The notes under the pieces were generated by a model, which saw nothing but the letters and a program-made list of their open reading frames with translations, did no database searches and was not told the origin of the DNA. From Globomyces pollinis-pini (Eukaryota; Chytridiomycota; Chytridiomycetes; Rhizophydiales; Globomycetaceae), in the NCBI GenBank assembly GCA_025399215.1, contig MU621461.1:1068-15610 (forward strand): 14,543 nt of DNA, in the 5' to 3' direction. The translations under genes were made by a program, and so were the position numbers. Positions within the stretch are counted from its first letter, which is position 1. Each line of letters begins with the position of its first letter. Positions 50 through 14,151 of this stretch are shown here, one piece after another.

Positions 50-604
50 TTAAGCCTTTCCAATTTTAGCTTCAAAGTTGTTGGCAGCTGCTGCGAACCC
101 TTGAGCTCTCGCGGCATTAGCATTAGGTGTTGCATTTCCAAATCCACAACCACCGTCACGATCTAGCGCAACCACCGCTCCGGCACACTTTCCAGTTCGA
201 AATGCGCAACATCCAGATTGACAGCCATCATCAGATTGGCAAACATCTGTAATGAACGTCTTCTTACCAGCTGCTGCATTGGCATTTTGAGGTGGTGGAA
301 CTGCTGGTGCTACAACTGCCTTTGATGGGGCAGCATTGCCACCTCCAATTTTAGCTTCAAATTCTTGGGCCGCATTTACCGCACCAGCAGCTCTGGCAGC
401 TCTTGCATTTGGAGTAGGGTCTCCAAAACCACAACCTCCATCGCGTTGTAATGCGACCACACCACCAGCACATTTACCGGTAGTAAAGGCACAACAGTCA
501 GATGCGCAATCTGCATCAGATTTACATACATCTGTAATGAATGTTTTCTTTTGAGGGAAGGCAATGGCAGTGAAGGCAAGGGATAGTATAACAGTTAATT
601 TCAT
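50..604 (-). CDS. Secreted cysteine-rich protein with two tandem domains (BAS2-like)
   Basis: Single-exon gene, 184 aa. Residues 1 to about 16 form a hydrophobic signal peptide (MKLTVILSLAFTAIA), so the product should be secreted. It contains two copies of one domain, residues 19-87 and 114-182, joined by a 26-residue Ala/Pro-rich linker. By my count the copies match at 52 of 69 positions. Each has six cysteines spaced C-x5-C-x3-CC-x6-C-x12-C, followed by the strings RDGGCGFG and TPNA, and ends in FEAKIG. This resembles the small fungal secreted proteins annotated as biotrophy-associated secreted protein 2-like, which normally carry one such domain of about 100 aa. The cysteines probably form three disulfides per domain. 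The molecular function is unknown; the name does not prove a role in infection. A TATA-like box lies 37-44 nt upstream of the ATG. It is transcribed in the same direction as the fungalysin gene behind it. Confidence 0.88.
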   Translation of the reverse strand: MKLTVILSLAFTAIAFPQKKTFITDVCKSDADCASDCCAFTTGKCAGGVVALQRDGGCGFGDPTPNARAARAAGAVNAAQEFEAKIGGGNAAPSKAVVAPAVPPPQNANAAAGKKTFITDVCQSDDGCQSGCCAFRTGKCAGAVVALDRDGGCGFGNATPNANAARAQGFAAAANNFEAKIGKA

Positions 605-640
605 TTTGATTTTGATGATTCTGACTTGTAATTGTATCCC

Positions 641-648
641 TATTTATA
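641..648 (-). promoter_or_regulatory. TATA-like box of the cysteine-rich protein gene
   Basis: TATAAATA on the minus strand, 37-44 nt upstream of the ATG at 604. With a usual 25-30 nt spacing to the transcription start, the 5' leader would be only about 10 nt. No functional evidence. Confidence 0.5.
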
Positions 649-1218: not shown

Positions 1219-3078
1219 CTAACATCCAGTTGGAAGCGCAAATCCATTTTTATAACCAGATTGAACAGCGTCAACTCCCAAACCACGTTTAGCAAAGGCT
1301 TTCCAGAGTTCACATTTATTGGCTCCAGCATAGTAAGTTTCATCAGCTTTAATGATAGCATCACGAGCATTGATTAATGTTGGATTACATGGTTGTAATT
1401 TTAATCCACCAATGACAAGTTGTAAGGCAATAATGTTGCCTTTAAGTTGAGTTGCATCATACCAGTTGGATGAAAACCCTGACTTGTCGACTAAATTCCA
1501 GTAAACTTCATTCAAGATAGTAGCCCAAACTTCTCCAATGTCATGAACTTCATTTCGAGTATTTAGGATGTTATCTAGCAAAGATGAATGAATTAGACAA
1601 CTTACATTGCAATGGATTGGTAGTCATGTTAGTGGAGTAAGGAACAGTTCGGATCCCTTTTGGATTGTTGATGACATAACTACCGGTGGTATAGTCAGTG
1701 GCTCTAGTGTCAGTTGCCTTACGTTCCAAAAACATAGCAACAGTATCACTCCATCCTTCACCCATACCACCCGATTCGGTAGTTTGAAGGCAGTTTCCTT
1801 GACGAGATCCACCAGTAAGACGGTTAGAAATACCATGAGTGTATTCATGAATAGGAATTCCATTATCAAGTGATCCATCTCGTTTAGGGGTTGTCAAAGT
1901 AAATGGATACATGTTCATCACACCGCTTTGACCATCAGGTGGGGTTGCAAAGTTTGCATTGTTGGTTCCAGATGCTTGGGTATTGAGTAGAACTTGGTCT
2001 CCACCATTACCACCCTTTCCATAATTGTCATTCTGGAAGTTACCAGCAGCTTCAGTGAATCCATATTGGTAAGTAATATCGTGAATAACATTGGCAACTA
2101 GATATAATTAGTCTACAATAACTTACGGTAGAATCCATTAACAATAGCAGCACGTTTGTTGGCTTCAGTAGTTGGATCAGCAGTAGCATCGAACTTGGTA
2201 TCAAAGTTCAATGAAGCACCTCCATCGATTCGCGTTTTAAACCAAAGGAATCCATTGATTCGGGAATCCACATTATTACCTTGAGTGGTGGTGTAAGTGG
2301 ATTTAGCATCCTTATGCCATCCAAATGGAGAAGCTTTCTTGTCTGCTGGATCAGTAACTGTTTCAAATCCGTCTCGTGGATCATTCTTTGGAAGTTTAAT
2401 CACATTGTATGAAGCTTTGTTGATGTAGTCAACAACTTGAACCAACTGACCAGTTGCTGTATCAACAGTGACTTGATAAAATTTGGAGAAATCTTCAGTC
2501 TTTAATTGGAATTGATATGCATAAACAAGTTTTCCACTTGGTACTTGAACATAGACAAGTTTTTCAGCGATTGAGTCGCGTGGAGCTCCCAATTCTTTAC
2601 TAGCACGCTTTACGGCTTCTTCAAGAGTGATTACCTTGGTGGCTGGGAGAACGTTTTCTGATCGTTTTTGAAGGCTTCCAGAAAATGAAGAAGAAAGTTG
2701 GACAACTTTTCCATTCTTTAAATGAATAGCACCATTGTTGTTGTCAACTGGGATACCATTGATCGAACGCACAACATACACGTGAGTAAGACCAGAGACC
2801 ACATCTTGATGGGATTGAGTGACTTTGATATCTTCGGCAGATAAATTGTATTCTTTTACAAATGCATCTACAGCAATTTTTGTGAGTTGTTCAGGAGTTT
2901 GAACATCTCGGGTAGATACATGATTAACAGGGAAAGATTTAGTAGAGACTTGTGGGTAGTAGAAAGCAGATGAGACACCATTACGTTTAACATATTGTAA
3001 TTCATGAGTTTCAACAGTTGTTGGAGCTGCATGGGCTGCAAGTACCAATGCCAAGGTAGTGATTTGTTTGTAATGCAT
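1219..3078 (-). CDS. Fungalysin, secreted zinc metalloprotease (peptidase family M36)
   Basis: Three exons: 3078-2127, 2097-1606 and 1574-1219, totalling 1800 nt and 599 aa, a normal length for fungalysins. The introns are 29 nt (2098-2126) and 31 nt (1575-1605); both have GTAAGT donors, a CTAAT branch motif and a CTAG acceptor. Splicing restores NGFYLANVIHD and [18 protein letters not shown], which suit the family. Residues 1-18 are a signal peptide ending HAA. The prodomain, including the FTP-type region, runs to about residue 225, and the mature enzyme probably begins near [12 protein letters not shown]. The zinc site is HEYTH (H401, E402, H405), with E431 in GEGWSD as the third ligand, so all key residues are intact. 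The enzyme should be an extracellular endopeptidase, self-processed from its prodomain. A TATA-like box lies 41-47 nt upstream of the ATG. Fungalysins feed saprobes and are expanded in some pathogens; which applies here cannot be told. Confidence 0.95.
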
Positions 3079-3118
3079 TTGTATTTCTTTAATGGTAAAC
3101 TCATTTTAAATGTTGGCA

Positions 3119-3125
3119 TTTTATA
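3119..3125 (-). promoter_or_regulatory. TATA-like box of the fungalysin gene
   Basis: TATAAAA on the minus strand, 41-47 nt upstream of the ATG at 3078. The spacing is close to that of the cysteine-rich gene (37-44 nt), again implying a very short 5' leader. Confidence 0.5.
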
Positions 3126-4242
3126 TTCATCAGAGATTTCACTGAGTTGTTCTGATGCATGGCAAACCATGTGTGACACCATGCACAGTAGTTGCACAAT
3201 TGATAATTCCGTTTGTCATGGCAAACTGAAGTTGGCAATGCTCTGAATATATCTTTGCTTCATTTTTGACCATGTACTTATTTTGTTATGTAATGGAGGT
3301 CATCTAGAGCTTAGAGTCAATTATTCATTGTTTTTTTCAAGTTCGCTGTTTTATCGGTCCGTCACGCCAGTCTCTGAGCAAAAACACCATGTGTAGATCT
3401 GCCATAACATTGAACAAAAGGAAAACCAGTTAGCAACAAAGCGTCATTCCGTCAAAAAATGTTATCATACTAATTGCAAGATAGTGCTCACTTACTGAAA
3501 ACTACAATGAATATTCTGAACATGGTTAGATAACCGGACAGCCAAGGACCCGTGTAACCAGGACATTGACAATTGTGCATGAGTTTGGAAATAAATGAGA
3601 ATGCCATTGAAGTCCCAGCTCACCAAAACGTTTTATTACCAGTAAACCCATAAAGCCGTAAGCAAAACACCACAGTACATCATTATATTACATTCAAACT
3701 TGAAAAATATCGATAGAGGTTGTCCGTAGAGAGTACTTTCGGAGAGCGGATTATTTTTTGGTGCTATTGAGATAACTATAGAAATTGGGACCCGTGGTTG
3801 AAGCACATTATAATCATACATGAGGGTATAGTTGATCATTTTGTCGAAGCAGTAGTTAGTTAGGGTACTTGATGATTTAAAAAGGAATCATGTCCAGAGA
3901 ATGATGATATTTGGAGAAGCAAAGACACCATGAAATGAAGTGCTCCAAGTAGATACCTTATTATACCGTACCTATTCCAAATAGGATTGATGTATTTTAA
4001 ACGCCGATTCTTTCATTTGGTTGCAACGCGAAAAAGAGAAACTTCATTTCGGGAATTATAAACCATGATCCTGGTGTCCCAATTCAATTTGGATAACACA
4101 TCATACCTCTTTATAAGGGTTGATTAATTTTTTCCTCACACGGGTGGACGGTATAGGCATGTAATAACTATATTCACAGCATATCCTTGCATACTTTATA
4201 TTTGCTGTACCTGATTAAGTTTTATGTTCATGAATTTCTTTC
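3126..4242. other. Long gene-poor intergenic region
   Basis: About 1.1 kb without a convincing gene on either strand. One 67-codon minus-strand ORF (3636-3839) has no family features, no signal peptide and no nearby splice structure. The region must contain the fungalysin promoter on its left and the start region of the next plus-strand gene on its right. I saw no terminal repeats or transposase remnants. A lineage-specific or non-coding transcript cannot be excluded. Confidence 0.5.
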
Positions 4243-5108
4243 ATGTTTAATCCACCACCATTCCAGATGAAATGTTTTTTATTTGCAGTTTTTGCTATAC
4301 ATTATATACTATCTTCAAATACAACTGTACATCCAATAACTGCAAACTTTGATATCGCTTGTTTTCTCCTGTTGGTTTCCGGTTCCTACTCTCTATTGTC
4401 TTTCTTTCTTACACCTTGCCAAATCACCAGTTGGTTGGATGAGGACATATTCGCCATTCCAGTAAAAGGGTTGAAAACTTATAGTCAGTATGACCCATTT
4501 CCAGCTTGGCAACCTGATCGTTTCAAAGTAACCATTAGTAACTCATGAGACTACTAATCTTACTAGGGACTAGAATTCAAGTAGCTAACTTTCTTCAATT
4601 AAAAGGACTCTCTATGGATATATCAGATTTAATATTAGACTATGCTGAATGCTGGAATATGTACTATCATTTTAATTCCCTTAAAGTGGTCGATGAAGGG
4701 AGATACTTCAGATATATTGTTACTAATCCAATACCCGATTTACGTAAATGTATAAAGATAATTGTGGAAATATCGTCCCGTGAAAAATTAGTTTGGAATT
4801 ATAGATTAAGAATGATAGGCTTAGGTGGTCTTACAGGAGCATACTTTTCTATTCTGAATAATATAGATGGCAATGAAGAACGTTGGGAAGCATATAAACA
4901 TGATTCATATGCAGGACAAGATTATAGATATAGAGAGCAAACAGATTGTACTGTTCGAGTGTTTGATATAACACGAGTACCAGATACAAAGTTCGGAGAT
5001 ATTGGACAGTTTAGGAAGAGTGATTCATTTATGATATTGATAGGTACCGAAGCGATACAGTTAATTAATTACGTTGAATATTGTAAAGTGTGGATATATT
5101 ATAAATAA
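4243..5108 (+). CDS. Diverged member of a fungal AEYW/HDQGW-type protein family (tentative two-exon model)
   Basis: The exon at 4567-5108 is the firmer part. It shares a layout with the gene at 10607-11137: a leucine-rich N-terminal helix (ISDLILDYAECW here, IETIFDIAEYW there), then NPIPDLRKCIKIIVE against QPIGHFEVMKVIVE, and a final strand ending KVWIYYK against KVYCR. The central HDQGW and late YPGW motifs of the relative are missing, so this copy has diverged. An upstream ORF (4243 onward) can be joined in frame through a 29-nt candidate intron at 4538-4566 (GTAACT donor, CTAAT, CTAG acceptor), giving 278 aa. The added N-terminus is hydrophobic and unlike anything I know. Alternatives are a start at 4545 without splicing (187 aa) or at ATG 4614, just before the conserved core. 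AATAAA overlaps the stop codon. Function unknown; this may be a decaying paralogue. Confidence 0.45.
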
Positions 5109-5109
5109 A
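5104..5109 (+). terminator. poly(A) signal overlapping the stop codon of the 4243-5108 gene
   Basis: AATAAA on the plus strand spans the TAA stop codon at 5106-5108, which would give an extremely short 3' UTR. Its position supports a real transcript end here, but AATAAA is common in AT-rich DNA. Confidence 0.4.
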
Positions 5110-5288
5110 AGGCTTCCAGTAGTAGTTTCATTTAGCATGTGGTTTGTGGGGCTTTTGAAACAATCAAGTAGAACTTTATAATTTACAGGAACATTCTTGA
5201 TTGGATTAAAGAAAGTTGCTAATTTTGAATACCAATAATCAACTATTTGGATTCTAATGAGAATTAGAACCGGATCATTGAATTCCAT

Positions 5289-5343
5289 TTTTTTTTTTTT
5301 TACTTTAAGCCATACAAGTCTCACTATTTTTTACTTTTTTTTT
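5289..5343. promoter_or_regulatory. Poly(T) tracts upstream of the LARP1 gene
   Basis: A run of 13 T (5289-5301) and a run of 9 T (5335-5343) lie 50-110 nt before the ATG at 5396. No TATA box is evident. Poly(dA:dT) tracts disfavour nucleosomes and are common in fungal housekeeping promoters, so this is a plausible TATA-less promoter. Role inferred only. Confidence 0.4.
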
Positions 5344-5395
5344 AAGAAAGTGTTGAATGTTAACCAGCACTGACGGTATGCTAAAATAACTCTTA

Positions 5396-8080
5396 ATGAT
5401 TACAGAACAAACAATGCCATCGGTCGAATCAAAAGAATCAAAACCCACTGTGAATATTTGGGATGTCAGGATGAACGCAAAGTCTACTACTAATAATAAT
5501 AATCTAAAATCAACTAAAACAATTAATAATATCTCAAAAAAAAATGTTAATGATGTCCCTTCAACTGCTGAACCAATTCAAAAAGTCTCCGTCCCATTGA
5601 AAGCAAAGGTATTGTCTCTCCTTATTTAACTCCTAAAGTTGGTCGAAGTAGCTGCTCGTAGCGAGAAAAAGTTAAAGGACACTGAACCAGAAAAACCTGT
5701 TGTGTTTGAAAGTTGGCCTTCTTTACATGATGCCCCAGACCCCGTTTCATCAGAAGATTCACTTCCAACTGGTGTCATCGACAAATTGAAAAATAAGGAA
5801 TGGAAGAAAGTTAATATTCAAATTCGTCATCCACCTGCTAATGTCGCCGGCAGCACCACCAGTGGCCCAGGGAAATACCGTAAAGGAAAAGCAAAGAAGG
5901 GCTCGGATGAAGAAAGGTATAGTAAACCTATATGTATCACTTTTTTATCATTCAACGAGGAGCTTTTGAATTGTACATTGGCTCTTAATCAACTTGTTCA
6001 ATTTTTTTTTCGTCACTTTTTTTCCATTTGAAAGTCTAATGCTAATGTTTTAGTACCTCCAACTCAAATAATGGGCACCGAAATCGCAGAAAGAATCGAC
6101 CAAATCGAGGAAAGAAAAATGACGTAAAAGGACCAGCACCAACCCCAGAAGAAGAGCTGAATATTATTTATCAATGGATCCTTTACCAACTGTAAAATAT
6201 TATTTTTAACTAATTGCATATAGTGAATACTATTTCTCGGCTGAAAACTTATGTCGTGACTTATATTTCCGCTCGTTAATGAATGTTGAAACAGGTTTTG
6301 TCCCATTGGAGAAAATCTTCAATTTTAATCGCATGAAGCAATTATTGCTTGGTGCTCAAATTAGACTTTTGCCAACTGAAAAGCAAGTTGACAAAAACGA
6401 AAGTGGTGACAAAACTGCTTCGACTACTACCCCGCCTTTGCCTGAATTAGATATTGCTTGGGCTATAGAACTTGTTTATTCTTGTATGGTTTCCCATGAT
6501 ATTTTGGAAATTAGTGAAGACCACTCCTCAATTCGATTGAGAGAAAATTGGAAAATTTGGATCACTCCAATAAATAAGGACACTGTCACAACTCCAGAGG
6601 CTAAACCAGCTCAAAACTCCACTCCATCTTTGGAAATGCCTACTCCTCCACTTTCGCCTTTCGTTCAAGGGGAACAGCAAGCAGAAGTAAACAATAATGA
6701 TGATGATGATGGTTGGGAAACTGCAGTCTCTAAACGCCGAAATAAGTCAACAACCAAACCTATTGTAAAAACTCAAACTCCTTCTCCTGTGGTTACTGTC
6801 ACTGAAACTAACGAAGAAGATGAGGAGGATGTCTTTCAATTTGATGAATCTGAAACTTGGGCAAAACCAGTTGGCTCCCTTGCCGAAGATTTAGAAGAGG
6901 CTGACCAATTTTTTGAATTGGAATCCGACTTTGAAGATGATGACTTGGATTCTATTCTTATTGTCACCCAACGTCACCATGAACAACATACCGCACTGCC
7001 AACTCCTCAACATCAAAACTTGCCACCTCGAAAGCATGCTACCCAACCATTTATCCGTTCTAAAGCAAACACAGACATTGCTGATATGATCAATGAAGGT
7101 TTATACCTTTATGAAAAGACAATTGGTACCCCTAAACCATTACGATCTGATAAGAAACTAAATGTGGTTGAACGTCCAGTTGACCAAACTCCAACAAAGC
7201 CGCAATCCAGATCTTTGTTGCCTGAATCTTCCACAGCTCCCATCACCATGAGTCCAAAGCGTTTTGTGACTGGTGGATTAACCGCTGCTTCACCACCTGT
7301 TGGTTGGTTAGTTAATAGTGCCGCACAGCAATCAAAATCCTTTGGTGATCGTCTTGGTACATCTTATGATAATAAGCATGGCACTTCTTTTGGTGGAAGT
7401 AGTTATGGCCGCTCACTAGGAAATTCTTTCGGTGGGCGTTCAATGAGAAGCAATGATGGACATCATGTGGGATCTTACAAGGAATTTACTCCTTTCCAGC
7501 ACCCTAGTTATGAACTATTGAAGGAAAATGGATTTATTCAACACAAATACTCCAAGTATCATGCCAAGGCAATCCGAGGTATAGAAATTTATTTTACTTA
7601 TATCTAGAACGCAAAATCAAAGGAATTGGCCAATCTCAAGAAATGAACACATTATTCAGATTCTGGTCACACTTCTTACGTGATAAGTTTAATTTGACAA
7701 TGTATCAAGAATTCAAAAAATTGGCACTTGAAGATGCTGCAGCAGGCTATCGTTATGGTTTAGAATGTATTTTCCGATTCTACTCTTATGGTCTTGAAAA
7801 CAAGTTTAAGATTAACTTATTCAATGATTTCCAAAATTTAACTTATCAAGACTACAAGGCAAACAACTTGACTTATGGTCTTGAAAAGTTATGGGCTTAC
7901 TTACATTATCGTAAGGATAAGAAAACAAGACCAGTCGAATCTATGGGATTATTGACTGAATTGAAGTCTCTTTTTGAAACTAAATTCACAAGCATGGATG
8001 ATTTCCGTGCTACTCGTCCACCTGCTCCGTATCGTCATTCCGGTCGTAAACCATCTGTGGACGTGTCTGCTCAATCTTAA
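5396..8080 (+). CDS. LARP1: LARP1-type La-related RNA-binding protein with DM15 region
   Basis: Five exons: 5396-5608, 5639-5916, 6054-6191, 6224-7578 and 7608-8080, totalling 2457 nt and 818 aa. Introns are 30, 137, 32 and 29 nt. Splicing restores [19 protein letters not shown] across exons 3-4 and [15 protein letters not shown] across exons 4-5, both diagnostic. The La motif covers about residues 200-325 and contains an extra stretch of about 35 residues (252-286) between RMKQLL and the last helix/wing ([14 protein letters not shown]). A long acidic and Ser/Thr/Pro-rich linker follows, including a DDDD run. The C-terminal DM15 region (about 636-770) has three helical repeats, with [17 protein letters not shown] and [14 protein letters not shown] in the second and third. 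In animals DM15 binds the mRNA cap and the adjacent 5'-TOP sequence, linking translation of ribosomal-protein mRNAs to TOR. A cytoplasmic role in mRNA stability or translation is likely here. An alternative in-frame start is ATG 5414. Confidence 0.93.
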
Positions 8081-8162
8081 ACCTTCATAAAATGCATACT
8101 CAATTTTTTTTTACTTTGAAAAAGGTTTTTTTTACAAAATATATTTGATTTTAACATTAATC

Positions 8163-10418
8163 TCAATGGACCCTCTTTTGAGCTTTAAATTCATATTTTA
8201 AACTTTTAGATTGTTCTGGTCGATAATGATCATTCCAAGTACCAGGAATTGATTTTTTAAGTTTTTCAATATGTCTTGATTGATTCAGTTTTGTTTCTTG
8301 AACAATTTTACGTAACTCCTAAAAGAAAATCAACATAAATACTAAGATACATCTGTTTGAGCCATTTGTAAATACAATTCTTCGCGTTCCGTTTCCGCAA
8401 TTTGTTCTTTCAAAAGTTGTATCTGTTGATTGATTCTAATCTCTTGTTTTTCTCTTTCCAATTTTCTTTTCAATTCCATATCATTCTGTATTTTTTTCAA
8501 TTCACGTCGTTCTTCCAATAACGTTTTTCGTTGTTTCTTTATATATTCATCCATCAATCCTTTTGTTAACTTTAACGAGATTTTTTAAAAAATGTTGTTT
8601 GTTACCTGTTGTTCAAAAAACTTTTGTTTTCGTATTTTACGTTGTGTTAAATCATTGATCGTTTCCATTTTATGAGTCATATGTTTGATACTTCGGAATC
8701 GATCATGTAATTTTCGTTGAACATTTTGTAATTCATTTTGATGTTGTCTTATTTCATTCTAGAATGATCAATATTTGTTATTGAATGATTGATTGTTTTG
8801 ATTGATATGGTGAATGATGTGGACTTACCAGTCGTTTGGAATCTCGAAGTTCTTTGATGAGTTGATCTAATGGTGTGGTATCACCCAATTCTTGTAAGTA
8901 TTTTTGCTATATTCATGTTAATCAAAATAAACATATACCATATTCACTTTTTGTGTCCATAATCGATCATCCAATGATTTCTTTGTTAATTTCAATTGAT
9001 TTTTCCAAACTTTTTCTTTTTCAAATTTTGGTATGGTATCTGTTAAAGGTATTGTAGTTTCAGCCATTTCAAAAAACTTTAAAAGATTCTTTTCAGGTAT
9101 TGATATATCATCCTGATAATGTGAAATATCAATTGGTTGTTTCACTTCTCCAGCTTTCATATATGATTCAATTAAATCAAGTTCACGTTGATCTAATTGT
9201 AACTTTGAATCATCCATTGTATCAGGTAATTTATGTAATTGTTGGTTGATAAATAAATCAAGCTCGTTCAAGTCTATATTCTTGGTGTGTTTAGATATAC
9301 GATGATTATCCAAAATTACTTTTTCAGTTTCATTTGGAAATTTCTTTTGATGTTGAACATGTTTCAACTTTTTTAATTTAATTGACTTTTGATCTTGTAA
9401 TGAGAGTTTTAGGGATTTCAAATAAGGTGATTGATGAACCTTTAAATTTATCTTTTCGTCCTAACCAATTAAAAACATCAACAACTTACTTTTAAATCAA
9501 ATTGAATTTGGCGTTTCTTTCTCATCGGATTTGTTGTAAATGATTCATCAAGATCAAGATCATCGTCTTTTACATTTCGAAGCCATTGTAAGATGTTTCC
9601 ATTTTTTGAATCTTTTTGACTTTGCCTACTTTGTCTCAATAACGGATGAACTTTCTTTGTAAGGTTTGAAACAAAAGGTTGATCGTTATCAGTACTTTTT
9701 TGTTTGGTTTTCTTCAAGATAGAATTTAATGGTATTTCAACTTTGTTTTGATTTTCACTCGTATAACTTGATGTCAAATTTGGAATATGATATTCAGAAA
9801 ATTGTTCAATAAATGATTGTGAATCAATTTCACTGTTCAACTTTGGTGATATATCGACACTTGAGTTTTCTTCAATACTACTGATAGATAAAACATGATT
9901 CTCCTTGATTGATTGATATGATGGTTTATCAACTCCATTATCTTCATGTCCAACATTCATTGAATCATTATCTTTCATGGAGTTCAATGATTTTGTCTTT
10001 TCATCTATAGATTAATGTAAAATACACGATCTTTGATACGTTTTAATGCTGCAATGAATACTTCCCAAAACAGATCCACTAAACCAGCAATAACATTTGG
10101 TTGTCTATCCATTATTTGTTGAATATCATAGAAATCTAAATTGACATCCCCCATTTCTTCCATCTTATTAATCAAGATTGTTAAATTATGCTCAACATCT
10201 CTTAAACTTCTATCTAATCCCTTTAACTTTGAGTTTGTAATTTTTTCGAATAGAGATGGCTATGGATATTATTGTATTGAAATTGAATACCCATAAAGTT
10301 GGAACACAGTGTGAAATCTGCTCTACTTGAAGGTTAATATGATAGTGATTCAATATAACATTGATCTTTCCAACTACAATTAGCTTAGAAAGTACTTACC
10401 AGAATTCTTTGTTTTCAT
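8163..10418 (-). CDS. CEP95-like centrosomal protein: N-terminal CH-like domain and C-terminal coiled coil
   Basis: Nine exons: 10418-10400, 10373-10291, 10259-10040, 10004-9490, 9460-8939, 8906-8829, 8758-8606, 8569-8351 and 8318-8163. They total 1965 nt and 654 aa. Introns are 26, 31, 35, 29, 32, 70, 36 and 32 nt, and every junction preserves frame. Residues 1-107 resemble the calponin-homology-like N-terminal domain of CEP95/CCDC45 (DUF5745 type): KINVILNHYHINLQVEQI, then a conserved Cys and Pro, SLFEKI, HNLTILINKME, and an acidic helix before GLVDLFWEVF. Residues 109-450 are polar and low-complexity, probably disordered. Residues 454-650 are Lys/Glu/Gln-rich and strongly coiled-coil (for example KKQRKTLLEERRELKKI). 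CEP95 in animals is a centrosome and spindle-pole protein; in a fungus a spindle-pole-body or cilium-derived role is inference. It shares a 188-nt divergent promoter with the gene at 10607 and converges on LARP1 with an 82-nt gap. The 35-nt intron could alternatively be 23 nt with the same frame. Confidence 0.82.
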
Positions 10419-10606
10419 TGTTGTTTTTACGTGGTTTTTTGTTTGATTTTCAAGTGAGATTTTGATAAGGCCAAACGTATAGTTTTACTAAATATAAAGC
10501 AATTGATTGGACTCTGATCAAGTCGTTGATTGGATTTATGGTATTCAAAGACACTTTGACTTGGTGGTCAGTTTGCTTTTTGCTTTGATTATTTTTAACG
10601 AATCAA
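10419..10606. promoter_or_regulatory. Short divergent promoter region
   Basis: 188 nt separate the ATG of the CEP95-like gene (minus) from the proposed ATG of the AEYW/HDQGW family gene (plus). Both promoters must lie here or reach into the neighbouring gene. An AT-rich AAATATAAA sits about 105-115 nt before the plus-strand ATG. No other element was recognised. Confidence 0.4.
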
Positions 10607-11137
10607 ATGTCAATTACCCGAGGTATTCAATCAGTTAGTTAATAGAAAGATGATCAAATAAGAGTTCGAAAATTGCTGCAAACAAAGGTAGGATTCTTGC
10701 CATTGGAATTAATCGAAACCATATTCGATATTGCGGAATATTGGGTTCTGGAATTCACTTCTAATGAAAAAGAAGTCAGTGAATGTAATATAAATTTATT
10801 ATATCTTTGTTCTCAACCTATTGGACATTTCGAGGTTATGAAGGTTATAGTGGAAACTTGCAGTCATGACCAAGGTTGGGCATCTGGAGTAGGAAGTTAT
10901 ACATGGTCGGAAATCGGGATAATGACAAGAAATGATGATGAAAAATTACGGATTCCTTTGTATTATAACAATCGAGCAGATGCCTCTGATCAAGAAAGAA
11001 CTTTTGAATTTCAAAAACATGATCAGTTGATTAAAGGATTGGATCATGGTGATCGTATCGCTATTTGGGTAAGGGCAATGTATCCTGGATGGTGTCACAC
11101 AATCTCTTATGCAAGGATCAAAGTATATTGTAGATAA
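10607..11137 (+). CDS. Fungal AEYW/HDQGW-family protein of unknown function
   Basis: The conserved body (10688-11137) begins VGFLPLELIETIFDIAEYW, a helix resembling an F-box-like start. It continues with VMKVIVETCSHDQGW, then GSYTWSEIGIM, a charged loop, GDRIAIWVRAMYPGW and a last strand ARIKVYCR. The pattern suggests an N-terminal helix plus a beta-sandwich. I recall similar uncharacterised proteins with HDQGW and YPGW motifs in other fungi but know of no assigned function. There is no ATG in the body's frame after the last stop at 10643. The best rescue starts at ATG 10607 (MSITR), with an intron at 10623-10649 (27 nt, GTATTC donor, TTAAT branch, AAAG acceptor), giving about 167 aa. An alternative acceptor at 10663-10664 gives a 42-nt intron with the same frame. 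The gene at 4243-5108 is a diverged relative. AATAAA follows the stop by 3 nt. Confidence 0.72.
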
Positions 11138-11139
11138 TG

Positions 11140-11145
11140 AATAAA
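11140..11145 (+). terminator. poly(A) signal of the AEYW/HDQGW-family gene
   Basis: AATAAA on the plus strand starting 3 nt after the stop codon. Cleavage 10-30 nt downstream would fall inside the end of the opposing DOMON/b561 gene. Confidence 0.55.
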
Positions 11146-11162
11146 TCAATCAATCGAAATAG

Positions 11163-11168
11163 TTTATT
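11163..11168 (-). terminator. poly(A) signal of the DOMON/b561 gene
   Basis: AATAAA on the minus strand, 4 nt beyond the stop codon at 11172-11174. It faces the opposing plus-strand signal 17 nt away, so the two transcripts probably overlap at their 3' ends. Confidence 0.55.
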
Positions 11169-11171
11169 CAA

Positions 11172-12381
11172 TTACAAGTTTTTTGAATTAGCTGCTCCAT
11201 CATGTACTTTTCCATCATGAACTTTTTCAATTTTATACTCTGCTACACCAAACGCTGCGATACCGATAGCAAACATGACCCAAAAACCGTTGTTGAATGA
11301 ACTATATTCATCGTATCCAAGATTGTTGATCAGCTCCTTGCCAAGGTAAACATTTACAACACCCAAGACCATTAAACTTCTACCCCACCACCAATGAAGA
11401 ACATCCCACCTAATATTAAATATAGACTAATTACCAAGGGATTGACGTTCGTTCCATTGAAAACAATCTATCGCAAATAATTCCCAAAATGACTTGAGCA
11501 AAAGTTCCAACAATCAATATCCACCCAATAATCGCATGTGATTTATTATCGTCGCTTATAGTAAAATACAGATTGACTGTAATAAATCCTGCAAGAGTAC
11601 ACCCAAATACAATTGGCCCCATAAAAAGAATATGTAGCTTGAACCAATGATGACCAAGAATTCCCTTCAAATATCGAGCAATAAATATACCAATGAATGG
11701 AGCTACAGCCCAAGCAATAAACATCAAGACGGCGTGTGCTAAAATCACGGTTTTCATTGAACTTCCAGATGAGGAATCAGATGTGGTGGAATCTGTAGGA
11801 TTCAATGGCTGTGAATTTGTTTGGTCGTCAGTTGGCAGACCAGAAGTATTTGTTCCATTAGTAGTTTGGTTTGCGATGACAATTGTAAAATCAAATTTAA
11901 AATTACCAGCACTACTATGCTTACTGAAACTGGCCGAGATTGAATCTACATTCGTTGTCGGGTTTGTTTTTGCACTGGCATAGGAAAACACTTGTAATGG
12001 AGTTATGGACTTGCCGTTTGTACTAATGATAACCGATCGACAGAACGAAAATGACAATTTAGACCAATCAGGCTGCGATTCAATTAATGGTACTAAAATC
12101 CCATTTTGTTGTGAATTAACTGGTGGTAAAAAGTACCCACCGCCTGCTCTATTGGATAATGTGATTCCACCTGTAGAATTTTTCCAACCCATATACATAT
12201 CCGAGTTAGTCATTGTTTTTGAACCCACTCCCATAGCTGCCCATCCTGTATTTGCGCTATGTACTGTAAAACATAATTGAGTATCAGACGCGCCTGTGCT
12301 ACTACTAATACAAAATTGATTTGATAAAGGACAAAACGACTTTGCTTCGGAAACCGCGAGTAAGAATAGGAAAACTAGCAT
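11172..12381 (-). CDS. DOMON domain and cytochrome b561 transmembrane protein
   Basis: Two exons, 12381-11435 and 11409-11172, totalling 1185 nt and 394 aa. The 25-nt intron (11410-11434) has a GTAATT donor, a TTTAAT branch and a TTAG acceptor, and its removal gives IPWWDVLHWWWGR, the typical junction before the last b561 helices. Residues 1-13 are a signal peptide. The DOMON domain spans about 15-175; M57 (in KTMTNSDMYMGW) and H155 (in SKHSSAGNFKFDF) are candidate haem ligands by analogy with cytochrome domains. A Ser/Thr/Asn-rich linker (176-208) follows, probably glycosylated. The b561 core has five or six membrane helices from about 210, with the four expected haem histidines H216 (AHAVLM), H250 (KLHILFM), H282 (SHAIIG) and H321 (VLHWWWGR). 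It should move electrons across the plasma membrane or a secretory membrane, perhaps for ferric reduction; donor and acceptor are unknown. Confidence 0.92.
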
Positions 12382-12456
12382 CGTTTAAATAAAAGCTTCA
12401 CAAAATGTAATGTTTAATAACGTACAATGAAAAAAAACAATGGGTGCTCGTTCGTG

Positions 12457-12466
12457 TTTATATATA
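12457..12466 (-). promoter_or_regulatory. TATA-like box of the DOMON/b561 gene
   Basis: TATATATAAA on the minus strand, 76-85 nt upstream of the ATG at 12381. This would give a 5' leader of about 45-55 nt, longer than for the two secreted genes at the left end. Confidence 0.45.
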
Positions 12467-12765
12467 GATTCAATCTCAATTTACTTCGGGATCAGCTTCA
12501 TCACACTAGTTGGTAGTGAGATGAGTTATTTATATGGTAATTACAATTTTAACCAATATTAAATTTGAAAAAACAAATGAGATTGATGGATATAACAATG
12601 AAGCCAAATATTTGGTATTCAAACAATACCATTATTGCTTTATTATAGTTGAACTTGTAACATAATAAATCTATTGACTCGTAAAAATATATTATTTTAG
12701 GTGCTTTGTTTACATCAACACCAAAGAACCAGGAAATAATGAGAGGAAAAAACGAGAAAATGGGG
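12467..12765. other. Intergenic region between the DOMON/b561 promoter and the tRNA
   Basis: About 300 nt of AT-rich sequence with no ORF or RNA structure that I could recognise. Confidence 0.45.
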
Positions 12766-12770
12766 AAAAA
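12766..12770 (-). terminator. RNA polymerase III terminator of tRNA-Glu
   Basis: A run of five T on the minus strand, starting 6 nt after the mature 3' end of the tRNA, as expected for Pol III termination. Confidence 0.7.
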
Positions 12771-12775
12771 GAAAC

Positions 12776-12848
12776 CTCCGAATCCGGGGTTCGAACCCGG
12801 GCAACCTGCGTGAGAGGCAGGGATCCTAAACCACTAGACTAATTCGGA
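12776..12848 (-). tRNA. tRNA-Glu: tRNA-Glu, anticodon CUC
   Basis: A 73-nt cloverleaf on the minus strand without an intron. The acceptor arms are TCCGAAT and ATTCGGA, with G as discriminator base. The D arm is GTCT-AGTGGTTT-AGGA. The anticodon stem CCTGC/GCAGG encloses the loop CTCTCAC, whose middle triplet CTC reads GAG codons. The T arm is CCGGG-TTCGAAC-CCCGG. All stems pair fully by eye. The internal B box GGTTCGAACC matches the Pol III consensus. CCA is not encoded, as usual in eukaryotes. Confidence 0.96.
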
Positions 12849-13408
12849 TCTGAAAATTTTCTCATAATTTCGTATCTAATGAGTTCAATATTGATTGTAT
12901 TACAGTCATGCTATTGCTTATTTTCAACCTATTTGAACCATCCAAAATATTAAAATGATAGAATATATTTAATTATAAATTACTCTAGAAATTTTGTAAG
13001 GGGTTTGGACAGCAATGAATAATAACCAACTAACTGTGTCTGTAGAATGTTAACTGTTACAAAATCTATAAAGAAGAAATTAGTATATTTAGATCCAGAG
13101 GTTCACAATTCACAGTTGAATTTGGTTAAGATGGGATAAACCACAAGCGCTCTTTTATTATAACTAGTTGAACTCTTATTTAATTCCCATGCAAATGATA
13201 CTATGTATTCATTACAAGCATATATACTTTGAGGTTAGTTAAAAACACATCCTTCAATTTGATTTTAAATAGAATAAAATAGGTAATGACAATCGCGTCC
13301 TTGACACAATTACTTACACCACTGATTAAAAGAATGAATTCAACAAATTCTCTTCCTTTGTAACTTTTATGTCTTTATCCGTTTCGTAGTCGCTTAAATG
13401 ACCTCAAA
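12849..13408. other. AT-rich intergenic region between tRNA-Glu and the cyclin gene
   Basis: About 560 nt with no ORF or RNA gene that I could support. It should contain the promoter of the cyclin gene. No clear TATA box was seen near 13409. Confidence 0.45.
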
Positions 13409-14151
13409 ATGGTATTTTTTTTATGTTCTTTCAAAAACAGAAGGATGAAATGATACCCAAAAAGCCTACAAATACATCAAAACCTAACAAAAAAATCATA
13501 GTACCCAGAAATTATCACGACTGCTCACCAGAAATACTAGTCAAATTAGTCATTGACTTGTTCAATAATTTATTGATTCATAATGATACTTTAAATCATA
13601 TCACTACCTTGTCAAACGTCACCAGATTTCATTCTAGGTCCATTCCTAATATATCTATTCATGACTATTTAACAAGAATATTCAAATATGTTGTTGTGGA
13701 AAATTCAGTTTTGATTATATTGTTGATTTATGTGGATCGAATCTGTGAAGCATTACCGAATTTCACTATCAGTTCTTATACAGCTCATAGGTATAATATA
13801 TTACCAAACAATACTAAATATTCAAGATTCATCATTGCAGCTGTTACTGCTGCTAGCAAATCTATATCAGATGTTTACTCAACAAATGCTTATTTTGCAA
13901 AAGTTGGTAATGAATTTATCTAATCAATCTTAGGTGGGATATCATTAACAGAAATCAATTTAATAGAATTAGAATTTTGCAAATCTCTAAACTGGAGATT
14001 ATGCTGTTCAGAAGCTACTGTTCAACAATACTATTTGAATTTAGCTAATTCCAATAGTGATATTAGTCTTCCGGATACTGTTCAATTTGTTCCTTACAAT
14101 ACACTGGATCAATATCTAGACTATATAAAACAAGATGGAAAGAAAGAATGA
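13409..14151 (+). CDS. Pho80/PCL-type cyclin
   Basis: The safe coding parts are 13441-13906 and 13934-14151. The 27-nt intron between them (13907-13933: GTAATG donor, CTAAT, TTAG acceptor) is required to form AYFAKVGGISLTEINLIELEF, the hallmark of this cyclin family. The cyclin box starts around SPEILVKLVIDLFNNLL, continues with RFHSRSIPNISIHDYLTRI and YVDRICEALPNFTISSYTAHR, then the FIIAAVTAASKSISDVY helix and the segment above. Cyclins of this type bind Pho85-like CDKs and act in phosphate sensing, polarity or the cell cycle; the partner cannot be told from sequence. Start options: ATG 13423 (MFFQKQKDEM, 233 aa); ATG 13450; or ATG 13409 followed at once by a 29-nt candidate intron (13412-13440), so that exon 1 is only the start codon (MKDEM). 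There is a possible AATAAA at 14260-14265. Confidence 0.9.

What the first reader, a model, noticed from the sequence alone, without database searches (positions are those of the whole stretch)
1575..13933. Genome with miniature spliceosomal introns (mostly 25-36 nt)
Restoring family reading frames forces 16 introns: fungalysin 29 and 31; LARP1 30, 137, 32 and 29; CEP95-like 26, 31, 35, 29, 32, 70, 36 and 32; DOMON/b561 25; cyclin 27. Fourteen of 16 are 25-36 nt and the median is 31. Many carry GTAAGT or GTATNN donors, a CTAAT-like branch motif and a TAG acceptor, so these signals are packed with almost no spacer. Established knowledge: typical fungal introns have a lower limit near 45-50 nt, and introns near 20-35 nt are known mainly from ciliates and nucleomorphs. 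The junctions fall inside conserved motifs of four independent families, so mis-calling is unlikely.
Basis: partly seen in the sequence, partly recalled or inferred. Interest (0 to 1): 0.88.

Follow-up and report, generated by a model that had tools for sequence, protein, structure and literature searches.

The report
Chytrid fungus with ~29-nucleotide introns
Genes of this chytrid fungus are cut up by many introns of only about 29 letters, far shorter than the gap that human splicing machinery is thought to need, so it is a natural test of how small an intron a normal-looking spliceosome can remove.

Summary
Fifteen of 17 are 25-36 nt, median 31.

A gene model without length preference, run on the window plus 20 x 10 kb of other contigs, peaks sharply: 202 of 283 introns are 20-45 nt, and these have median 29. 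At 24-35 nt it of 284, six control dinucleotide pairs 10-34 of 246-288. Trained without the window it finds 14 of 17 window introns exactly. Independently, 25 of 25 exon gaps in M36 genes imply 22-37 nt.

They are GT-AG introns with a YTRAY branch motif, the A at about nt 21 and 8 nt before the end, below the ~50-nt donor-branch distance of human spliceosomes (PMC6692369). U2, SF1 and U2AF65 are present; U1 and U6 were not found. Introns this short are known in ciliates, nucleomorphs, Trichomonas and microsporidia. No transcript evidence was available.

The parts
2098..2126 (-). Fungalysin (M36) intron 1, 29 nt
   Evidence: Needed for deposited P0001, no other GT..AG within 30 nt gives it; M36 profile 509 bits spliced vs 62/265/153 per exon frame; recovered with the window left out of training
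1575..1605 (-). Fungalysin intron 2, 31 nt
   Evidence: As intron 1
5376..5405 (+).
   Evidence: Needed for the N-terminus of deposited P0122; not recovered by the gene model
5609..5638 (+). LARP1 intron 2, 30 nt
   Evidence: P0122; in-frame stop if retained
5917..6053 (+). LARP1 intron 3, 137 nt
   Evidence: P0122; missed by the gene model, which merged it with the next one into 307 nt; best branch A 8 nt before the 3' end
6192..6223 (+). LARP1 intron 4, 32 nt
   Evidence: P0122; La domain profile 1-46 spliced vs 6-46 in the exon frame; missed by the gene model
7579..7607 (+). LARP1 intron 5, 29 nt
   Evidence: P0122; LARP1_HEAT 212.7 bits spliced vs 25.2 for the exon frame
10374..10399 (-). 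CEP95-like gene intron 1, 26 nt
   Evidence: Gene model only; upstream of the deposited start
10260..10290 (-). CEP95-like intron 2, 31 nt
   Evidence: Gene model only; weak branch motif
10005..10039 (-). CEP95-like intron 3, 35 nt
   Evidence: Gene model only
9461..9489 (-). CEP95-like intron 4, 29 nt
   Evidence: Deposited P0121
8907..8938 (-). CEP95-like intron 5, 32 nt
   Evidence: P0121
8759..8828 (-). CEP95-like intron 6, 70 nt
   Evidence: P0121; best branch A 9 nt before the 3' end
8570..8605 (-). CEP95-like intron 7, 36 nt
   Evidence: P0121
8319..8350 (-). CEP95-like intron 8, 32 nt
   Evidence: P0121
11410..11434 (-). DOMON/b561-type gene intron, 25 nt
   Evidence: Frame closure and gene model; no family match across the junction
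13907..13933 (+). Cyclin (PF08613) gene intron, 27 nt
   Evidence: Cyclin profile 106.6 bits spliced vs 74.6 in exon 1

Best explanation
These are ordinary major-class (U2-type, GT-AG) spliceosomal introns of the chytrid Globomyces pollinis-pini, whose usual length is about 29 nt. Shown by sequence: a donor (G)GTA(A/T)N(T), a branch motif YTRAY whose A lies at about intron nt 21, and a (T)AG 8 nt after that A, with no distinct polypyrimidine tract. The stretch from branch A to AG stays short also in the two longer window introns, and length varies mainly between donor and branch. Inferred: recognition is by intron definition, by a largely conventional spliceosome (U2 with its branch-pairing stretch, SF1 and U2AF65 are present). 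With only about 20 nt between donor and branch, U1 at the donor and U2 at the branch probably cannot sit on one intron in the spacing of the human complexes. More likely the donor is handed to U6/tri-snRNP as U2 docks, or U1 leaves early, and U2AF65 acts through protein contacts with SF1 rather than by gripping a pyrimidine tract. That these are real, widespread introns is nearly certain; the handover model is an inference that I put at about 0.4.
For: Deposited proteins P0001, P0121 and P0122 require 12 of the 17 window introns exactly. Gene model with a flat length prior on 214,543 bp: without splice-signal training 29 of 59 GT..AG introns (cap 120 nt) are 25-34 nt, vs 3-9 of 43-54 for ten control dinucleotide pairs; with training 180 of 284 are 24-35 nt vs 10-34 of 246-288 for six controls; 202 of 283 clean introns at 20-45 nt, median of these 29; the peak stays for four intron penalties and an 800-nt cap. 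Trained without the window it makes 35 intron calls in the window: 14 of the 17 listed, and all 13 of its calls of 20-45 nt are on the list. M36 family over the whole genome: 25 of 25 within-gene exon gaps imply 22-37 nt, median 29, on 15 contigs. Predicted isocitrate lyase with seven introns called 25-29 nt and glucose-6-phosphate isomerase with seven called 22-32 nt align nearly end to end with solved structures. Branch motif log-likelihood 90.1 vs at most 16.2 in 20 shuffles, the shuffles given fewer starts and rounds; geometry. U2 snRNA 135 bits with GTGTAGTA; U2AF65 325 bits, over the TIGR01642 cut-off, SF1-HH 117 bits, both gene models with tiny introns of their own.
Against: No RNA evidence was available: the deposited proteins are gene models. 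U6 and U1 were not found, though these searches had no positive control. The summed gene score of the GT..AG model (7622) is below three of the six controls (7778-8145), and the controls start from a coding table trained with GT..AG introns; only the length peak and the splice-site information set GT..AG apart. Of the 35 window calls, 21 are not on the list; all 21 lie outside 20-45 nt and are probably spurious, as are many calls above 60 nt elsewhere. Three of 17 window introns are missed by the model; two of them were merged into one call of 307 nt. A naive scan for GTA(A/T)GT plus CTAAY found only 5 pairs at 26-33 nt vs about 1.4 expected, and 0 vs 0.85 at 34-37 nt. Single junctions can be off by a few nt: an isocitrate lyase intron called 25 nt is 28 nt by homology, and the isomerase intron called 22 nt has two extra residues at its junction, so probably is 28 nt.
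Confidence: 0.96

Rival explanations
1. The inserts are not spliced but skipped by the ribosome, like the bypassing elements of some yeast mitochondria (recalled).
For: Short inserts inside coding frames; 153 of 195 are not multiples of three.
Against: They begin GTA, end (T)AG and carry a branch motif far above shuffles; the genome has U2 snRNA, SF1 and U2AF65; the deposited models remove 12 of the 17 window ones.
Confidence: 0.01
2. The true introns are longer and the short boundaries are mis-called, or the frame breaks are assembly errors.
For: Draft assembly of 459 contigs; some introns are longer (70 and 137 nt in the window); two sampled junctions are off by 3 and probably 6 nt.
Against: Profile coordinates run on across the gaps in 25 of 25 M36 junctions; 12 of 14 isocitrate lyase and isomerase junctions show no alignment gap at the junction; errors would not give GTA...TAG at a nearly constant 29 nt.
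Confidence: 0.02
3. The tiny introns are a local oddity of this window or of a few genes.
For: None beyond the first view being one window.
Against: Sample from 20 other contigs, leave-window-out and M36 genes on 15 contigs.
Confidence: 0.01
4. The tiny introns are removed by a minor (U12-type) or strongly altered spliceosome rather than by the major one.
For: Donor-branch spacing of about 20 nt lies far below the human estimate (PMC6692369); +5 G is weak; U6 and U1 were not found.
Against: Donor and branch motifs look U2-type; U2, SF1 and U2AF65 are conserved. U12 was not searched.
Confidence: 0.03

Closest known systems
Paramecium / Nyctotherus introns (about 25 nt; PMC5014332, passages)
   Same: Short introns as the main class, near the size seen here.
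   Different: Ciliates; 3n introns there are under pressure and rich in stops. Here 42 of 195 are 3n and 38 of 42 hold an in-frame stop, but the gene model cannot see stop-free 3n introns, so no conclusion.
Stentor coeruleus introns (15-16 nt; PMC9505925, abstract and sections 3, 5, 10)
   Same: Branch A at a short distance from the 3' end; AU-rich; steric question for lariat formation.
   Different: Shorter and uniform; 18% of genes have introns. Here about 29 nt with a variable donor-branch part.
Encephalitozoon cuniculi (microsporidia) introns (22-76 nt; PMC3629993, abstract start, passages and section 10)
   Same: Fungal kin, GT-AG, overlapping size range.
   Different: 34-37 introns in the genome, relatively strict motifs, over fifty core spliceosomal components lost. 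Here of the order of 10^4 introns by scaling, loose donors, U2AF65 and SF1 kept.
Chlorarachniophyte nucleomorph introns (18-23 nt; PMC6461891, passages)
   Same: 800-1,000 tiny introns in a small genome.
   Different: Relict nucleus; Bigelowiella natans has shortened U1 and U5. Here the 18.5-Mb genome of a fungus.
Trichomonas vaginalis type B introns (about 25 nt, shortest 23; PMC12316389, passages)
   Same: CTAA-type branch motif near position -11 from the 3' end, 23-25 nt.
   Different: 24 such introns in the genome, in an intron-poor parasite.

Membership tests
U2-type GT-AG spliceosomal introns | GT donor and AG acceptor at coding-frame breaks | tested here: met
   17 of 17 window introns; GT..AG exceeds ten control pairs at 25-34 nt
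U2-type GT-AG spliceosomal introns | Branch motif near YTNAY upstream of the AG | tested here: met
   Log-likelihood 90.1 vs at most 16.2 in 20 shuffles; 149 of 195 score above 2
U2-type GT-AG spliceosomal introns | U2 snRNA with branch-pairing stretch | tested here: met
   C213:1166-1358, 135 bits; GTGTAGTA read
U2-type GT-AG spliceosomal introns | U1 and U6 snRNAs | tested here: inconclusive
   Not found (U1; U6); no positive control in those searches
U2-type GT-AG spliceosomal introns | SF1 and U2AF65 | tested here: met
   SF1-HH 117.3 bits; U2AF65 325 bits over the cut-off 310.3, on gene models whose ends I set by hand
U2-type GT-AG spliceosomal introns | Removed from mRNA as a lariat | not testable with these tools
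   No RNA data
Ultra-short intron genomes (Paramecium, Stentor, nucleomorph kind) | Main length class below about 36 nt | tested here: met
   187 of 283 clean introns at 24-37 nt; 25 of 25 M36 gaps imply 22-37 nt
Ultra-short intron genomes (Paramecium, Stentor, nucleomorph kind) | Selection against stop-free 3n introns | tested here: inconclusive
   38 of 42 3n introns hold a stop, but detection is biased
U12-type introns | Extended ATATCC/GTATCC donor and TCCTTAAC branch (consensus recalled); U12 snRNA | tested here: inconclusive
   The donor and branch tables do not show these as the main form; single introns were not classified and U12 was not searched

The most novel reading that the evidence does not exclude
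An intron-rich fungus that keeps U2AF65 and SF1 routinely splices introns with only about 20 nt between donor and branch and no distinct pyrimidine tract. Its pre-catalytic complexes must therefore differ in geometry or order of assembly from the human ones, making it a possible fungal model for minimal-intron splicing.
Probability: 0.5. Interest if true: 0.8.

Novelty: new member of a known kind. Interest (0 to 1): 0.58.

Why it matters
The human B complex is estimated to need about 52 nt between donor and branch (PMC6692369, passages). Tiny introns elsewhere sit in ciliates, relict nuclei or parasites with reduced or intron-poor genomes. A chytrid with tiny introns in many genes, U2AF65 and SF1 kept, would let the question 'how short can a spliceosomal intron be, and which step sets the limit' be tested in a fungus (that it can be cultured is recalled). 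It also suggests that gene callers with a minimum intron length of 40-50 nt would break many genes of this fungus.

Tried and rejected
Naive motif-pair scan (GTA(A/T)GT, CTAAY, YAG): too strict, little power. The first round of the gene model saw few introns (20). 3n depletion: confounded by detection, dropped. Pyrimidine tract: runs of 5 or more in 12 of 149 introns after the branch, where there is little room, and 27 of 149 before it; T content on both sides is near the intron background. RED_N (partner of Smu1) not found, but nothing rang in the controls either and exons are short. CEP95 identity: no Pfam or NCBIfam hit. SSU rRNA for taxonomy: not answered; deposited proteins gave the species instead. 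Intron lengths in relatives: not looked at; no DNA of relatives was fetched. Literature: ten searches; in the listings, and in the passages I opened of twelve papers, I saw no intron lengths for Globomyces and no tiny introns reported for a chytrid. The genome paper (Amses et al. 2022) was not read, only seen cited in passages of PMC11797018 and PMC13391722; MycoCosm pages may state a mean intron length (recalled).
Full report
What was claimed. The window is G000:C371:1068-15610 of an 18,547,825-base draft genome in 459 contigs.

Organism. The spliced fungalysin equals P0001, deposited as Globomyces pollinis-pini, over all 599 residues. The LARP1 model equals P0122 once a fifth intron is added. 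The CEP95-like model contains P0121 entirely, from residue 117 of the model. The species is a chytrid of the order Rhizophydiales.

Window introns. Twelve of 17 introns are required by deposited proteins: fungalysin 2, LARP1 5, CEP95-like 5. At each of the 12, no other GT..AG choice within 30 nt of either end gives the same protein. The LARP1 intron at 5376-5405 is new to the finding. The three 5' introns of the CEP95-like gene and those of the b561 and cyclin genes were not compared with deposited proteins. Spliced scores rise over single exon frames for M36 (509 vs 265, 153 and 62 bits), LARP1_HEAT (212.7 vs 25.2) and cyclin (106.6 vs 74.6). Fifteen of 17 are 25-36 nt, median 31. The deposited proteins are gene models; I do not know which junctions had transcript support.

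Genome sample. Twenty 10-kb stretches, bases 20,001-30,000 of contigs C1-C20 (109-272 kb long, so large contigs, not a random draw), plus the window make 214,543 bp. Only 33 open frames of 250 codons or more occur there. A gene model with a flat length prior of 15-400 nt and no splice-signal model, started from those frames and retrained, gave 19 of 64 introns at 25-34 nt (last round). With a cap of 120 nt it gave 29 of 59 at 25-34 nt, against 3-9 of 43-54 for ten other dinucleotide pairs. With self-trained splice sites the counts at 24-35 nt were 180 of 284 for GT..AG and 10, 22, 34, 25, 19, 20 of 250, 288, 250, 252, 253, 246 for six controls. All controls start from the coding table, which was trained with GT..AG introns. 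The summed gene score does not favour GT..AG over three of those controls, so the coding model is weak and calls above 60 nt should not be trusted. After removing strand conflicts and weakly flanked introns, 283 remain: 202 at 20-45 nt, the median of these 29, most often 28 (37) and 29 (33) nt. The peak stays for four intron penalties with an 800-nt cap. Trained without the window, the model makes 35 calls there: 14 of the 17 listed introns to the base, with all 13 calls of 20-45 nt on the list; the other 21 are shorter or longer and not on it. It misses three LARP1 introns that the deposited model needs.

Independent check by a protein family. In the whole genome 49 M36 matches were found. 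All 25 within-gene gaps between consecutive matches imply introns of 22-37 nt, median 29, on 15 contigs. The estimate is good to a few nt: for the window's own 29- and 31-nt introns it gives 29 and 28. Four copies run through the profile with no stop and no gap (C198 three times, C77). This check uses no model of mine.

Conserved enzymes. A predicted isocitrate lyase with introns called 29, 27, 25, 28, 28, 28 and 29 nt matches PF00463 at 789.5 bits over its whole length and aligns with 1dqu; one extra valine at the third junction shows that the 25-nt intron is 28 nt, by a tandem AG. A predicted glucose-6-phosphate isomerase with introns called 22-32 nt reaches 789.7 bits and aligns with 3nbu; its third junction (22 nt) has two extra residues, so that intron is probably 28 nt. 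The other 12 of these 14 junctions have no alignment gap at the junction. Over 60 selected exon runs there are 263 introns up to 60 nt in 72,388 bases of coding sequence, 3.6 per kb, 86% of them 24-36 nt; runs of three or more exons joined by introns up to 60 nt were chosen, so both figures are biased upward. Scaling 202 per 214,543 bases gives about 17,500 for the genome, an order of magnitude only.

Anatomy. Among 202 introns of 20-45 nt: +3 A 93%, +4 A 41% or T 41%, +5 G 26%, +6 T 49%, exon -1 G 60%, acceptor -3 T 78%. Among 195 of 22-40 nt the best 6-mer is (A/T/G)(T/C)T(A/G)A(T/C), log-likelihood 90.1 against at most 16.2 in 20 shuffles; the shuffles had 3 starts of 30 rounds, the real set 15 starts of 60. 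In 149 of 195 introns with a good motif, sought only 3-15 nt before the end, the A is at nt 21 (median) and 8 nt before the 3' end; length correlates with donor-branch spacing (0.73) more than with branch-acceptor spacing (0.36), partly because of that limit. The 70- and 137-nt window introns also have a best branch A 8-9 nt from the end. Three window introns have their best-scoring motif 17-18 nt from the end (1575-1605, 10260-10290, 9461-9489), so the spacing is not fixed or the true branch differs there.

Machinery. U2 snRNA: one match, 135 bits, with GTGTAGTA. U2AF65: 325 bits against a cut-off of 310.3; SF1-HH 117.3 bits; both gene models have tiny introns. U1 was not found by Rfam; U6 neither by Rfam, nor by two strings, nor by BLAST with a recalled human sequence. 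These searches had no positive control, so absence is not shown.

Mechanism. In human cells a donor-branch distance of about 50 nt is given as the minimum for efficient assembly, and 52 nt is the estimate from the B complex; Smu1 and RED help short introns (PMC6692369, passages). Here the median is about 20 nt. So either U1 and U2 do not occupy one intron together in the human spacing, or the complexes are built differently. For Stentor, differences in Cwc25 and Isy1 were proposed to matter (PMC9505925, section 10); these were not examined here. Without a distinct pyrimidine tract, U2AF65 probably works through SF1 and the AG-binding partner (recalled biology). This step is inference.

Comparison. 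Tiny introns are a known kind: Paramecium and Nyctotherus about 25 nt (PMC5014332, passages), Stentor 15-16 (PMC9505925, sections 3, 5, 10), chlorarachniophyte nucleomorphs 18-23 (PMC6461891, passages), Encephalitozoon 22-76 (PMC3629993, section 10), Trichomonas 23 and up (PMC12316389, passages). A fungal survey calls a mean of 63 bp in Cryptococcus relatively short (PMC8476143, passages). What I did not see reported, within ten searches of the library, is an intron-rich chytrid in which about 29 nt is the rule. It is implied by deposited proteins and may be stated in pages I could not see.

Noticed in passing
195 tiny introns in window and L009-L028: Two donor types: with +4 T (80 introns) exon -1 is G in 71%, with +4 A (81) in 43%; +5 G is 26%, weaker than in most fungi (recalled). 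It looks like the known trade-off between U5 and U6 pairing (recalled).
   Followed up: partly
G000 whole genome: U6 snRNA, usually highly conserved, was not found by four searches; it may be missing from the draft, interrupted by introns or lost by search filters.
   Followed up: partly
G000: C198, C77 and C371, C65, C308 and others: The M36 protease family holds uninterrupted copies beside copies cut by tiny introns at shared positions near profile 101 and 266, a ready set for intron gain and loss.
   Followed up: partly
window 4542-5108 (+) and 10646-11137 (+): Two unknown proteins on either side of the LARP1 and CEP95-like genes are distant relatives of each other (25% identity over 119 residues, E 3.6e-6), without Pfam match.
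   Followed up: no
window 50-643 (-): Small secreted-looking protein made of two cysteine-rich repeats, no Pfam match.
   Followed up: no
window 12776-12848 (-): tRNA-Glu (CTC).
   Followed up: no
L018 minus strand, isocitrate lyase intron 3: Tandem acceptor AATAGTAG: homology favours the downstream AG, and use of the upstream one would add a valine.
   Followed up: no
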